DNA of 64,000 bases from a virus: the IMG/VR virus record IMGVR_UViG_3300035188_001379, positions 120,466 to 184,465 of that record. The stretch is one strand, 5' to 3'. Below, one piece after another: positions 4,767-9,238 of this stretch. The position numbers and the translations under genes are program-made. Position 1 is the stretch's first letter, and every line of letters begins with the position of its first letter. The notes under the pieces were generated by a model, which was not told the origin of the DNA, made no database searches, and was given only the letters and a program-made list of their open reading frames with translations.

Positions 4767-5006
4767 ATGAGATCAAAAGAAATCGAAACACTTCACAGAA
4801 TTAACGACGTGCTTCAGTTGCTGTTTGAAAAGATCAGCAACAACAGCACAAACCCTTTCGAGATTCTGGACGCACTTGATGAAACAATCGAACTTGTTCA
4901 AGAAATCGCTGAGATTATTCCTCACGACAGTTTCTACAGACGAGTTCCAGAAGAGCATCTTGTGGGTTTGAAGAAACTTCGAGATGAGGTAGTTTCTGGG
5001 CTGTGA
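4767..5006 (+). CDS. Small acidic helical protein, paralogue of the 5978 gene
   Basis: 79 residues, mostly helix. It shares a pattern with the protein at 5978: MR(S/T)KE start, then NPF(E/D) followed by a D..D..(I/L)EL.(E/Q)E(I/L) helix. Family unknown. Preceded by a CA-rich leader (TCAACCACCCATACAC) and no Shine-Dalgarno sequence; a terminator follows. Confidence 0.65.
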   Translation: MRSKEIETLHRINDVLQLLFEKISNNSTNPFEILDALDETIELVQEIAEIIPHDSFYRRVPEEHLVGLKKLRDEVVSGL

Positions 5007-5021
5007 ATTGCTGCACAGCCA

Positions 5022-5062
5022 AACCCCACCCCAATCTGGGGGTGGGCGGATCTTTTTTTAGC
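5022..5062 (+). terminator. Rho-independent terminator
   Basis: GC-rich stem CCCACCCC/GGGGTGGG with loop AATCT, then GCGGATC, T7 and AGC. Confidence 0.85.
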
Positions 5063-5094
5063 TAGCAGCCCTTTTAAAAAAACATACATATTTG

Positions 5095-5103
5095 TGGTAT
5101 AAT
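5095..5103 (+). promoter_or_regulatory. Extended -10 promoter of putative ncRNA
   Basis: TGGTATAAT followed by ATTTTGAATAG, matching the consensus of the other sites. Nothing convincingly protein-coding follows for about 460 nt. Confidence 0.75.
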
Positions 5104-5109
5104 ATTTTG

Positions 5110-5545
5110 AATAGAAATTTATAGCATATAGCTATAGGCTACTGTTCCAAGCATGCTAAGAAAGTATGCAGTGAGTCACGACTAAACAGGGCTAACTATG
5201 CTGAGAATAGTATAAGGTTCGATCTGCCAAAGAGGTCCGAAGTATGCTATGATAGTATACAGCCTTGGGATACAGGCCAAAGTCGAATAACACATATCCC
5301 CAAAAGCATGCTATGTAAGTATGCAGTACGGTTCACCGCTAAACGGGAGCAGTCTAGGAGTAAAGACTCAGCAGTGTATATTCGCAATTTAGAATATACA
5401 AAACTGCTACTCACTGCGCTATACAGCGAAAATAGCCCGATCGCTTGGAGAGGCGGAATGGCGTGGCACACACGTCTAAATACAAGTGTGTAGACTAGTG
5501 GACAGTCTGGAGTCCGTCCACTGACGAAGCAGGCTCTCGTCATGT
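5110..5545 (+). ncRNA. Putative large structured RNA
   Basis: A promoter at 5095 drives about 440 nt with no credible gene but many perfect stems. Four hairpins have sequence RYATGCT, a 5-6 nt loop, then AGTATRY (5151-5169, 5197-5214, 5242-5260, 5306-5324). A two-tier hairpin lies at 5370-5408 (AGCAGT plus GTATATTC paired with GAATATAC, then AAA, then ACTGCT), and another stem is AGTGGAC/GTCCACT at 5497-5522. The flanks of hairpins 1 and 4 repeat (CTAAAC then GG), and those of 2 and 3 share GCCAAAG. Large ornate RNAs such as GOLLD occur beside phage tRNA genes, but identity to any known class is not established. Confidence 0.6.
5151..5324 (+). repeat. Four imperfect hairpin repeats
   Basis: Hairpins at 5151-5169, 5197-5214, 5242-5260 and 5306-5324. 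Three have 7-bp stems and one has 6 bp. G:T wobbles occur at the same stem position in each, and the loops differ (AAGAA, GAGAAT, ATGAT, ATGTA). Conserved stems with variable loops fit a functional RNA better than chance. Confidence 0.7.
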
Positions 5546-5570
5546 CATATATAACAAATAGTTATATATG
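5546..5570 (+). promoter_or_regulatory. Hairpin covering the Nudix start codon
   Basis: CATATATAAC (5546-5555) pairs perfectly with GTTATATATG (5561-5570) around loop AAATA. The ATG at 5568 forms the last three bases of the stem. It may block translation, or form the 3' end of the upstream RNA. Confidence 0.55.
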
Positions 5571-5981
5571 ATAAAACCTGCAGCTTTTCATATGAAACCC
5601 ATGAAACAGGAGAGAGTCAGAGTAGTACTTCCTTACCTAGAAGGCTATCTTCTAGAAAGGTTAAGCAACCCAAGATGGCCTATGAACATGGGTAAAACCA
5701 GACATGTAGGCGGAGGAATAGAGAACAATGAAACCCCAGAACAGGCAGCAAGCAGAGAGCTGTTTGAGGAGCTCGGAGTAACTATACCTCCAGCTTCTTT
5801 TGAGAAACTTGGTTCCCACGAGAATCAACACTATTTGATCGTGAAAGATCATGGTCTTGTTCCTGGTGTGTATAAAGCATCTGTAGGCTCAGATGAGTAT
5901 ATACATCTTGTAGCAGGAGATCTCAAGGAAGCTCAGTATATCGGCCCTAGACTAGAAACCCTAACCCAACCCACACAATGA
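5568..5981 (+). CDS. Nudix hydrolase
   Basis: 137 residues with a complete Nudix box (GX5EX7REUXEEXGU) at about residues 49-71: G, five residues, E, then RELFEELGV. Nudix enzymes hydrolyse nucleoside diphosphate-linked compounds using Mg2+ bound by the REUXEE glutamates. The substrate is not predictable; phage examples act on nucleotides, NAD-type dinucleotides or RNA caps. The ATG used is buried in a hairpin; ATGs at 5592 and 5601 are alternatives that keep the domain intact. The stop overlaps the next start (ATGA). Confidence 0.9.
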   Translation: MIKPAAFHMKPMKQERVRVVLPYLEGYLLERLSNPRWPMNMGKTRHVGGGIENNETPEQAASRELFEELGVTIPPASFEKLGSHENQHYLIVKDHGLVPGVYKASVGSDEYIHLVAGDLKEAQYIGPRLETLTQPTQ

Positions 5982-6214
5982 GAACTAAAGAAGAACTCAC
6001 GTATCTTATTGAGCTGATGAAAATCACTTTTAAGATAATAGAATCGACTGAGTCACACAACCCATTCGACGTTATCGACAATGTTGACAGAGCGCTAGAG
6101 CTTTTCGAGGAGTTGATCAGCGTAGCTGTGGACCCGCAGTTTAAGTCTGAAGCTGAAGAAAAACGAGATAGCCTGGTGAATTTTCGGCAATTCGTTCTTG
6201 ATAACGCAAACTAA
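5978..6214 (+). CDS. Small acidic helical protein, paralogue of the 4767 gene
   Basis: 78 residues, related to the 79-residue protein at 4767 by a shared start and the NPFDVIDNVDRALELFEEL helix. Translation is coupled to the Nudix gene by a 4-nt overlap. The upstream sequence TAACCCAACCCACACA resembles the CA-rich leaders of other genes even though it lies inside the Nudix reading frame. Function unknown. Confidence 0.65.
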   Translation: MRTKEELTYLIELMKITFKIIESTESHNPFDVIDNVDRALELFEELISVAVDPQFKSEAEEKRDSLVNFRQFVLDNAN

Positions 6215-6235: not shown

Positions 6236-6439
6236 ATGACAGCCACAAAAGAGCAGCAAAGGCTCCTAGACTTCTTGTGCGAGAAATATGATCTTGCCGA
6301 GAAAGCTGGAAATCAGATCAAGCAGCTAGAGATGATAGACCGTATCATTCTGTTTGATGAAGACCATCCTGGAATCATCTCTAAGGAGAAGCTTGAGAAA
6401 ATTAAACAGATTGGTGAAGAGATACTAAAAAACCTCTAG
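6236..6439 (+). CDS. Small helical hypothetical protein
   Basis: 67 residues, helical and charged (KEQQRLLDFLCEKYDLAEKAG). Possibly a distant relative of the 4767/5978 pair by size and character, but without the NPF motif. Preceded by a clear CA-rich leader (TTCAACCCAACCAACAAAC). Last gene before a terminator. Confidence 0.6.
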   Translation: MTATKEQQRLLDFLCEKYDLAEKAGNQIKQLEMIDRIILFDEDHPGIISKEKLEKIKQIGEEILKNL

Positions 6440-6451
6440 CCGCTCAGATGT

Positions 6452-6494
6452 AAACCCCGCCTCGATTCTGAGGTGGGTGGATCTTTTTTTTAGC
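6452..6494 (+). terminator. Rho-independent terminator closing the early block
   Basis: Stem CGCCTC/GAGGTG with loop GATTCT, then GGATC, T8 and AGC. The 170 nt between here and the next gene are AT-rich with a weak TATAAT at 6518-6523 and no gene. Confidence 0.8.
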
Positions 6495-7129: not shown

Positions 7130-9238
7130 ATGAACTACAACACACCTATTAGAGACGTTTCAAACCCTGTGATTAACGCAGGGCTTGAAGCTTTATTTGG
7201 CAAGAATCTTATTCCTTCAAGGCTTGAAGGAGAAGACATGATAGACGCTCTTAATAGGCGAGATCGTACACTAGCTTTTAGAGAGAGTGCTGCAAACAAT
7301 TTTGCAGATAATCCAATTGTTAGCCGCCTAGGTGAAAAAGGGTCTAAAGCCTTGGGTAAAATGGACGCACTCTCCGGGGGCAAGCTCAGCGGTTTCTTGA
7401 GTCCTATGCTTGGCGGTAACACATATAAGGCTACAGAAAATGTGCATAACATGCTGCACAATCCTGCAGCTATGAGTGCTTTTGGTGGAGGAAATCACAA
7501 TTCCGAGAATATTATGAAGGCATTACACAAGAACTTCTATAAGCATGCCGAGAATGCTTCTTTAGCGGGTAGCTATATTAATCAGAACATAGGAGAGCTA
7601 CCAACCATCAAAGAACCGGAGAGTATTTCTTTTACACCTGTAGACAATGGTAAGAAAGTAGGGATGGGCTCAGGCTCTAGCACTTTTGCTGGAAAAACAC
7701 CAGTACAACATGCTGAGCACTATCCTAGTCGCAGTGCAGATAAAGCTATCCCAAGAAAGTCTGGTAAAGCCACAATCTCAAAAATACCTATGGGACGTAT
7801 GCCTGCAGCTATGAGTAAAATGGCTCTAGATGATAAGAGTGACACACACACCTATAGAATGGAAGGTAACGTGCAAGGAGTAGGTTTGCGTAAAGCTCTA
7901 CATAAAATACTTGAGGAAAATAGACTCAATGGGCTTGCTGTGAACTATCCAGAAACAAACGAGGTATATGCTACCATACAAGGAAGGAAAAAGAGGATAG
8001 ATCAGATTCTTGATGAGCTTAAGGCCCGTCTGGCGGTGAGAGAAAAAAAGCCTCTGGCTTACGGAACAGACTATAGCATCGAGCACGCTCCAGCCATGAA
8101 GGAAAGGATGCGTAGGGTTGTATTTACTCCAAAAGATATAGAGGTGTTTGAGCAAAACAATCCTGAGCTCGATAAATTCAAAACAGTAGATCTAGAGAAT
8201 AAACTCAAATATTTTGAAGACCGCTATAGGCTACATAGAGACGCTCGAGGGAAGTTGAGAGGCAGTCTGCCCAATAAAGCCATAGACCAGTTGTTTAATG
8301 GTGCTCCTGTGTATCACAGACAGGTATTAGCGCGTAACGAGAATAACGAGAAAGCTGCGTTCTTTACAGGCTTTCTCAAAAGAGCTGCAGAACATGGCTT
8401 TAGCCGCGAGGACACTGTAAAGCTTGCTGCTACATATAAAGAAGCAGTGGCACTTTCAGGAATAGGGAAAGCTTTCGGCACAAAAATGATGCCAAAAATA
8501 TTTAACATGGCTCGCGGAGCTTTTGGCAGTCTTCGTTCACTAGGTTCTAGTGTACCTGAGGGGCCTCTACACACTGAAAGAAATGCAGCGTTAGAAGCGG
8601 GAAACAAGTTTATTGAAAACTTCAAACCTGAAGGTTTTCGTATGTACGCAGGTCGAGTAAAAACACCTGAGAGTCTTGCTGGGCATGGAGGAGGGGTTAC
8701 AAACGACTTGCTAGGTATTAGAATGAGGCCTAGCAAGGGAGGCTATACTCAGGAAAGCGCAGACAACCTTGTAAATCAATTAAGACAGGCAGGGGTAAAT
8801 GTAAGTGGGCAGAAAAAACTTGTAAGACCTGGGTATCACGGCTGGAACATAAAAGGAACATTGCCTCACGCTACTGGGGATGTACCTATCGAAGTGCAGA
8901 TGACTCCGAGAAGAATGCAGGGCATATTTGCAGCGAACCATGCGTATGTATACAAGCCAGAAACATCTGGAGTCTCTCCAGCGGTATCAAAGGGCATCTA
9001 TGACCCAGCATTAAACTATGTGACAAACGTGCTTTCACCGATGAGTAGCCCAGCCAAGAGAATAGGTTATGGTGCTGCCGGGGTAGGTGCGCTAGGTACA
9101 ATGGGCGGTGTTGGCTATAACGCTGTAAAAGGACCAAATAACGCAGCGCAAAACAATGGAGAAGCCTTCAATAGTCAGGCTATATATGATAGAGTTCAGA
9201 CTAGTCCCGCTAGCTATCTAGCTCAGCAAACAAGATAA
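7130..9238 (+). CDS. Polyvalent virion-type protein: acylphosphatase plus RelA/SpoT-like domains
   Basis: 702 residues. Residues about 240-300 match acylphosphatase: EGNVQGVGLRKAL contains the phosphate-binding VQGVGxR loop and arginine, and VNYPETNEV holds the partner asparagine position. Near residues 410-438 is the GFLKRA..HGFS motif. Residues about 505-605 resemble the RelA/SpoT nucleotidyltransferase core: GRVKTPESL, NDLLGIRM, then IEVQMTPRRM and HAYVYK, aligned with KS.eS, D..GiR and EvQiRT..M. The Q-x-R of that last motif is altered, so pppGpp-type activity may be changed or lost. The end is glycine-rich (residues about 640-670). Multi-domain enzyme fusions of this kind fit phage polyvalent proteins injected with DNA. 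Confidence 0.75.
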   Translation: MNYNTPIRDVSNPVINAGLEALFGKNLIPSRLEGEDMIDALNRRDRTLAFRESAANNFADNPIVSRLGEKGSKALGKMDALSGGKLSGFLSPMLGGNTYKATENVHNMLHNPAAMSAFGGGNHNSENIMKALHKNFYKHAENASLAGSYINQNIGELPTIKEPESISFTPVDNGKKVGMGSGSSTFAGKTPVQHAEHYPSRSADKAIPRKSGKATISKIPMGRMPAAMSKMALDDKSDTHTYRMEGNVQGVGLRKALHKILEENRLNGLAVNYPETNEVYATIQGRKKRIDQILDELKARLAVREKKPLAYGTDYSIEHAPAMKERMRRVVFTPKDIEVFEQNNPELDKFKTVDLENKLKYFEDRYRLHRDARGKLRGSLPNKAIDQLFNGAPVYHRQVLARNENNEKAAFFTGFLKRAAEHGFSREDTVKLAATYKEAVALSGIGKAFGTKMMPKIFNMARGAFGSLRSLGSSVPEGPLHTERNAALEAGNKFIENFKPEGFRMYAGRVKTPESLAGHGGGVTNDLLGIRMRPSKGGYTQESADNLVNQLRQAGVNVSGQKKLVRPGYHGWNIKGTLPHATGDVPIEVQMTPRRMQGIFAANHAYVYKPETSGVSPAVSKGIYDPALNYVTNVLSPMSSPAKRIGYGAAGVGALGTMGGVGYNAVKGPNNAAQNNGEAFNSQAIYDRVQTSPASYLAQQTR

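What the first reader, a model, noticed from the sequence alone, without database searches (positions are those of the whole stretch)
5110..5545. Candidate new phage structured RNA beside the tRNA block
A strong promoter drives about 440 nt with no credible protein. It contains four related hairpins (RYATGCT, loop, AGTATRY), a two-tier 14-bp hairpin at 5370-5408, and stems at 5497-5522 and 5546-5570. Paired positions are kept while loops vary. Phages are known to carry large RNAs such as GOLLD near tRNAs, but the repeated hairpins here do not match a class I recognise.
Basis: partly seen in the sequence, partly recalled or inferred. Interest (0 to 1): 0.78.

Follow-up and report, generated by a model that had tools for sequence, protein, structure and literature searches.

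The report
Orphan structured leader RNA in phage
A large environmental phage makes a long, strongly folded, non-coding RNA with four near-identical hairpins in front of a Nudix enzyme gene; it looks real, but no relative was found in any searched phage, so its covariation and function cannot yet be tested.

Summary
From a promoter of the type this phage group uses (inferred start G5109), about 460 nt without coding signal run up to a Nudix hydrolase gene. The stretch folds far better than its shuffles (z -5.6, 0/100). It holds four hairpins sharing the exact stem ATGCT/AGTAT (0 of 3000 shuffles reach even three copies). The repeat domain is structured on the + strand only (z -3.35 against +0.29), because every copy keeps a G.U pair; this favours RNA over a DNA palindrome.

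Three parts of the reading weaken. (1) The first hairpin (5109-5147) is the standard 5'-terminal hairpin of this group's transcripts. (2) No terminator separates the RNA from the Nudix gene, so it is made as that operon's leader; the tRNAs lie 2.2 kb upstream. (3) It is an orphan: no Rfam, ROOL or GOLLD match and no homologue in 27 related phage records, GenBank phages, plasmids or IMG/VR pattern scans. "Paired positions kept" rests on one C-G/U-A exchange, not significant.

Most likely it is a multivalent binding RNA cut from the Nudix leader; a cis-acting leader is almost as likely. Side result: the same genome's other tRNA cluster, outside the window, carries a ~90-nt RNA family with strong covariation, absent from Rfam.

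The parts
5025..5046 (+). Intrinsic terminator of the upstream transcription unit (followed by TTTTTTTAGC)
   Evidence: the tail TTTTTTTAGC recurs at this group's terminators
5074..5103 (+). Promoter, extended -10 TG-GTATAAT; inferred transcription start G5109
   Evidence: the start is inferred from leaders that begin at the G of TTTGAA
5109..5147 (+). 5'-terminal hairpin (6 + 8 pairs), the group's standard transcript leader hairpin
   Evidence: 24 distinct leaders, mean -9.87 kcal/mol against -5.13 for shuffles
5149..5193 (+). Repeat unit 1: hairpin 5151-5169 GCATGCT-AAGAA-AGTATGC plus linker with TCACGACTAAACAGG
5194..5239 (+). Repeat unit 2: hairpin 5197-5214 TATGCT-GAGAAT-AGTATA (can also pair with unit 3)
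5240..5303 (+). Repeat unit 3: hairpin 5242-5260 GTATGCT-ATGAT-AGTATAC; GGGATA/TATCCC pairing in the linker
5304..5350 (+). Repeat unit 4: hairpin 5306-5324 GCATGCT-ATGTA-AGTATGC plus linker with TCACCGCTAAACGGG
5170..5176 (+). 5' strand of predicted closing stem AGUGAGU (pairs with 5409-5415)
   Evidence: mean pair probability 0.83 for the fold of 5109-5545
5370..5408 (+). Two-tier hairpin, 6 + 9 pairs
   Evidence: the surrounding 5340-5440 has z -3.28
5409..5415 (+). 3' strand of the closing stem ACUCACU
5497..5522 (+). Stem AGTGGAC/GTCCACT in a tail that is otherwise not unusually structured
5543..5573 (+). A/U-rich 13-bp hairpin just before the Nudix start; not a terminator (no T run)
5568..5981 (+). 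Nudix hydrolase gene (true start may be ATG 5592 or 5601), first gene of the same transcription unit
   Evidence: PF00293, E 4.8e-10; full Nudix box read in the sequence
5978..6214 (+). Small protein, 78 aa, unknown
6236..6439 (+). Small protein, 67 aa, unknown
6456..6477 (+). Intrinsic terminator, the first clear one after the RNA

Best explanation
A large phage with no close cultured relative transcribes, from its usual promoter, a long structured non-coding RNA as the first ~460 nt of a Nudix hydrolase operon. SHOWN in sequence: promoter, no coding signal, strong fold, four tandem units that share one hairpin stem with a fixed internal G.U pair, no terminator before the Nudix gene, no relatives found. 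INFERRED: the RNA starts at G5109 with the protective 5' hairpin common to this group; the units sit inside or beside a closing stem (5170-5176 with 5409-5415) together with the two-tier hairpin and present several copies of one binding surface, the ATGCT/AGTAT stem, to a protein (a decoy or titrating RNA) or to one another; cleavage ahead of the A/U hairpin at 5543-5573 frees a stable ~430-nt RNA and leaves the Nudix message with its own 5' hairpin. It would thus work like a multi-hairpin titrating RNA. The bound partner is unknown.
For: Fold z -5.60, 0/100 shuffles. Repeat domain z -3.35 on + and +0.29 on -: strand-specific because each hairpin has a G.U pair, as expected of RNA. Four copies of one stem in about 175 nt against a maximum of two in 3000 shuffles; units 1 and 4 also share their linker. 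No coding signal. Shared promoter and 5'-terminal hairpin. Related phages carry other separate structured RNAs: L019 7318-7845, 528 nt, same promoter type, z -6.95, ending in a terminator; and L017/L007, ~210 nt, about 84% alike in two phages, ending in a terminator.
Against: No homologue, so no covariation evidence. No terminator between RNA and Nudix gene, which fits a cis leader as well. Processing and abundance are not testable here. The fixed stem could also be a DNA or protein-site repeat.
Confidence: 0.4

Rival explanations
1. Cis-acting leader: the 460-nt 5' untranslated region controls the Nudix operon (translation, stability or attenuation), with the hairpins binding a phage or host protein or a ligand.
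For: No terminator between RNA and gene; the A/U hairpin overlaps the first Nudix ATG and ends close to ATGs 5592 and 5601; RNA and Nudix operon are both missing from relatives, so they may travel as one cassette.
Against: It is longer than usual riboswitch leaders; no Rfam leader class matches; other structured RNAs of this group are stand-alone units with terminators.
Confidence: 0.36
2. DNA element: the four imperfect palindromes are protein-binding iterons (operator, origin or partition site), read by the first stage as RNA hairpins.
For: Tandem ~19-bp dyads with constant half-sites and variable centres; spacing 45, 46 and 64 bp.
Against: All four have the same G/T departure from a DNA palindrome, which is a G.U pair in RNA; the repeat domain is structured on one strand only; they lie downstream of a promoter inside a transcript; no replication or partition gene was recognised next to them.
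Confidence: 0.1
3. A diverged member of a known large phage RNA class (ROOL or GOLLD).
For: Size, phage origin, tRNA genes 2.2 kb upstream; ROOL and GOLLD are often near tRNA islands (PMC12286853).
Against: Neither model matches at E<=1 in the phage record or eight relatives (the control genomes did not ring either), and cmscan at E<=10 gives no such hit.
Confidence: 0.04
4. Non-functional sequence: a decaying or recently acquired intergenic stretch whose repeats arose by tandem duplication.
For: Orphan in a hypervariable region; units 1 and 4 look like duplicates.
Against: Loops and linkers diverged while the stem stayed exact; strong overall fold with a promoter and the standard 5' hairpin.
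Confidence: 0.1

Closest known systems
ROOL RNA (RF03087)
   Same: Large non-coding RNA of phages, often near tRNA islands, function unknown, folds elaborately (PMC12286853)
   Different: No match to the model; ~430 nt against a 574-position model; made as the leader of a Nudix operon; four identical-stem units
GOLLD RNA (RF02032)
   Same: Large phage RNA, sometimes beside tRNAs
   Different: No match to the model; GOLLD members often exceed 800 nt (PMC12286853)
CsrB/RsmZ-type titrating RNAs (from general knowledge)
   Same: Several repeated hairpins in one RNA, suggesting several copies of one binding site
   Different: CsrA sites are GGA in loops; none of the four hairpin loops here (AAGAA, GAGAAT, ATGAT, ATGTA) has GGA, and the constant part is the stem
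Stable RNAs C and D of the T4 tRNA cluster (from general knowledge)
   Same: Small phage RNAs of unclear function near tRNAs
   Different: Not in this tRNA transcript; own promoter and a protein operon behind it

Membership tests
ROOL | Match to covariance model RF03087 | tested here: not met
   No match at E<=1 in G000 and eight relatives (no control genome rang), nor at E<=10 in 4950-5650
ROOL | Encoded near phage tRNA genes | tested here: inconclusive
   Last tRNA ends at 2875, 2.2 kb upstream, in other transcription units
ROOL | Forms a homo-oligomeric RNA cage | not testable with these tools
   Needs cryo-EM or mass photometry
GOLLD | Match to covariance model RF02032 (conserved 3' region) | tested here: not met
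   No match (no control genome rang)
tRNA or tmRNA | ARAGORN or Rfam RF00005/RF00023 match | tested here: not met
   None at standard settings in 5110-5575; only an 11-base GGCGGAATGGC also present in the window's tRNA-Leu
Riboswitch or other Rfam leader class | Match to any Rfam 15 family | tested here: not met
   Only chance hits far below the gathering scores
CsrB/RsmZ-type titrating RNA | Repeated GGA in hairpin loops | tested here: not met
   Loops AAGAA, GAGAAT, ATGAT and ATGTA read from the sequence
Structured RNA conserved by selection on pairing | Compensatory changes in homologues | not testable with these tools
   No homologue found; among the four paralogous hairpins the signal is not significant

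The most novel reading that the evidence does not exclude
A new class of large phage RNA in which tandem modules with an invariant G.U-bearing stem form a multivalent scaffold or protein decoy, co-transcribed with and cut from a Nudix enzyme message, in a phage group that carries several unrelated large RNAs as exchangeable cargo.
Probability: 0.3. Interest if true: 0.7.

Novelty: new variant of a known kind. Interest (0 to 1): 0.45.

Why it matters
Large structured phage RNAs such as ROOL and GOLLD are among the least understood RNAs. This phage group seems to carry several unrelated ones: this RNA, a 528-nt RNA in L019, a ~210-nt RNA in L007/L017, and a covarying ~90-nt RNA in tRNA clusters or next to tmRNA. 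If real, they give a set of new RNAs with clear boundaries, and this one ties such an RNA to a Nudix enzyme in one transcript.

Tried and rejected
Homologues by neighbouring proteins: the Nudix protein and the 702-aa protein gave none in IMG/VR; the 507-aa protein gave 27 loci, none with the RNA. Two-tier hairpin scan, 0. Genome contigs: the 507-aa protein gave none. Plasmids, none; GenBank phages, only ~20-30-nt chance hits. Alignment with the L019 RNA: nothing beyond chance apart from the promoter. A tRNA-like reading of 5440-5545 (11-base D-arm match) was dropped: no tRNA hit at any useful score. CRISPR-like array: dropped because stems, not whole repeats, are constant. ARRPOF and mir-567 hits are far below their gathering scores.

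Full report
SETTING. The window is the last 64 kb of a 184,465-base virus record. Its 507-aa metallophosphoesterase-like protein (143-1666) has 27 relatives in IMG/VR, the closest 86% identical, but the only GenBank phage matching most of it is 26% identical. So this is a large phage group without close cultured relatives.

OBSERVATION. Region 5110-5545 has no coding signal in any frame, no Rfam match and a fold far more stable than its shuffles (for 5110-5575: -150.9 against -116.1 kcal/mol, z -5.6). Four hairpins share the exact stem ATGCT/AGTAT with loops AAGAA, GAGAAT, ATGAT and ATGTA. In 3000 shuffles of the region no stem appears more than twice, and a model of the unit finds just these four places in the whole record. 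Units 1 and 4 also share a linker, so the array is a set of diverged tandem copies.

RNA OR DNA. Every copy has G opposite T inside the stem. As DNA this spoils the palindrome; as RNA it is a G.U pair. Accordingly the repeat domain 5140-5350 is more stable than shuffles on the + strand (z -3.35, 0/120) and not on the - strand (z +0.29), while the neighbouring two-tier hairpin is strong on both. This favours an RNA role on the transcribed strand. The covariation among the four copies is weak: one C-G/U-A exchange, not beyond shuffles.

TRANSCRIPT. The promoter belongs to a series in this phage group, TGGTATAATnnTTTGAAT. Leaders starting at the G of TTTGAA form hairpins at or near the 5' end: 24 distinct leaders average -9.87 kcal/mol against -5.13 for shuffles, with no set of 100 below -6.2. 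The target's first hairpin, 5109-5147, is such a leader hairpin. After the RNA no terminator was found before the Nudix gene, and the first strong one with a T run is at 6456-6477, so Nudix (PF00293) and two small genes share the transcript. The A/U hairpin 5543-5573 stands before the Nudix start much as 5' hairpins stand before other genes, which suggests, without proof, that the message is cut there.

DISTRIBUTION. No relative of the RNA was found in the 27 related records, in GenBank phages, in plasmids, or by exact two-hairpin patterns in IMG/VR (hits examined). The Nudix and the two small genes are also missing from the relatives. RNA and operon therefore look like one accessory cassette in a hypervariable region.

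OTHER RNAS OF THE GROUP. Relatives hold further structured RNAs behind the same promoter type or with the same terminator tail: L019 7318-7845 (528 nt, z -6.95, terminator) and L017 14525-14735 with L007 5601-5813 (about 84% identical, terminator). Neither has an Rfam match (L007). Outside the window, the same genome's second tRNA cluster holds a ~90-nt RNA at G000 92611-92701. Homologues lie at the same place in G002, in the tRNA cluster of G014, just before the tmRNA of G016, and in G017 (found blind by the model, 65 bits, E 1.4e-17). In five sequences 14 of 26 pairs show changes on both sides with 95% of cells paired, and no shuffle of 500 reaches this (the alignment was fitted to the structure, but the four-sequence MAFFT alignment already gave 9 of 26). 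It has no Rfam match and is absent from the window. This is a better supported new phage RNA beside tRNAs than the target itself.

MECHANISM. I rank a multivalent binding RNA released from the Nudix leader (0.40) just above a cis-acting leader (0.36). The first fits the repeated identical stems and the group's habit of making stand-alone RNAs; the second fits the missing terminator. A DNA iteron array (0.10), chance or decay (0.10) and a hidden ROOL/GOLLD member (0.04) are less likely.

VERDICT. A real, strongly structured, non-coding orphan element; a promising candidate RNA whose function and class status remain open until homologues or expression data are found.

Noticed in passing
G000:C1:92611-92701 (L240:1501-1591; L248); G002:48438-48526(-); G014:42414-42502(-); G016:31801-31889; G017:20735-20824: A ~90-nt structured RNA (core TAACCACRAMCCCMCTGGTANTAGG) inside tRNA clusters, directly 5' of a phage tmRNA in G016, and apart from any tRNA in G017; 14 of 26 pairs with compensatory changes in five sequences; no Rfam match, no exact match in genome contigs. 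Looks like a new RNA family.
   Followed up: partly
L238:14690-14887 (G000), L241:1490-1720 (-, G002), L242:1240-1500 (-, G014): Behind that RNA, two tandem units (and related copies in G014) GCGACACCTGC...GTGGTGTGACA..CTGGnGAGAC, non-coding, between tRNA-Met and tRNA-Gly in G000 and G002.
   Followed up: partly
L236:13179-13609 (G000:C1:52179-52609) and L247:1599-2012 (G016): Phage-encoded tmRNAs with unusually long predicted tags (30-31 aa, ending ALAA and ILAA).
   Followed up: no
L019:7318-7845 (identical in L028): A 528-nt promoter-driven, terminator-ended RNA without evident coding gene, z -6.95, no Rfam match.
   Followed up: partly
L017:14525-14735 and L007:5601-5813: A ~210-nt non-coding RNA conserved at about 84% in two phages at different places relative to the 507-aa gene, ending in an intrinsic terminator; no Rfam match.
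   Followed up: partly
promoters at window 3153, 5096 and in L002-L019 (list): Group-wide transcript design: terminator tail TTTTTTTAGC, often a TACCCCCCC run, promoter TGGTATAATnnTTTGAAT, 5'-terminal hairpin, then a leader that is A/C-rich in many cases with no obvious Shine-Dalgarno site. The C run is unexplained.
   Followed up: partly
window 5440-5480: GGCGGAATGGC, 11 bases identical to the D arm of the window's own tRNA-Leu (2553-2638), inside the RNA's tail; the tail is not a tRNA by ARAGORN or Rfam.
   Followed up: partly
L019:6005-7282 and 8634-9230: Proteins that by reading resemble DUF1501- and DUF1549-type proteins, common in Planctomycetota and relatives, a possible host hint (not tested with a library).
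   Followed up: no
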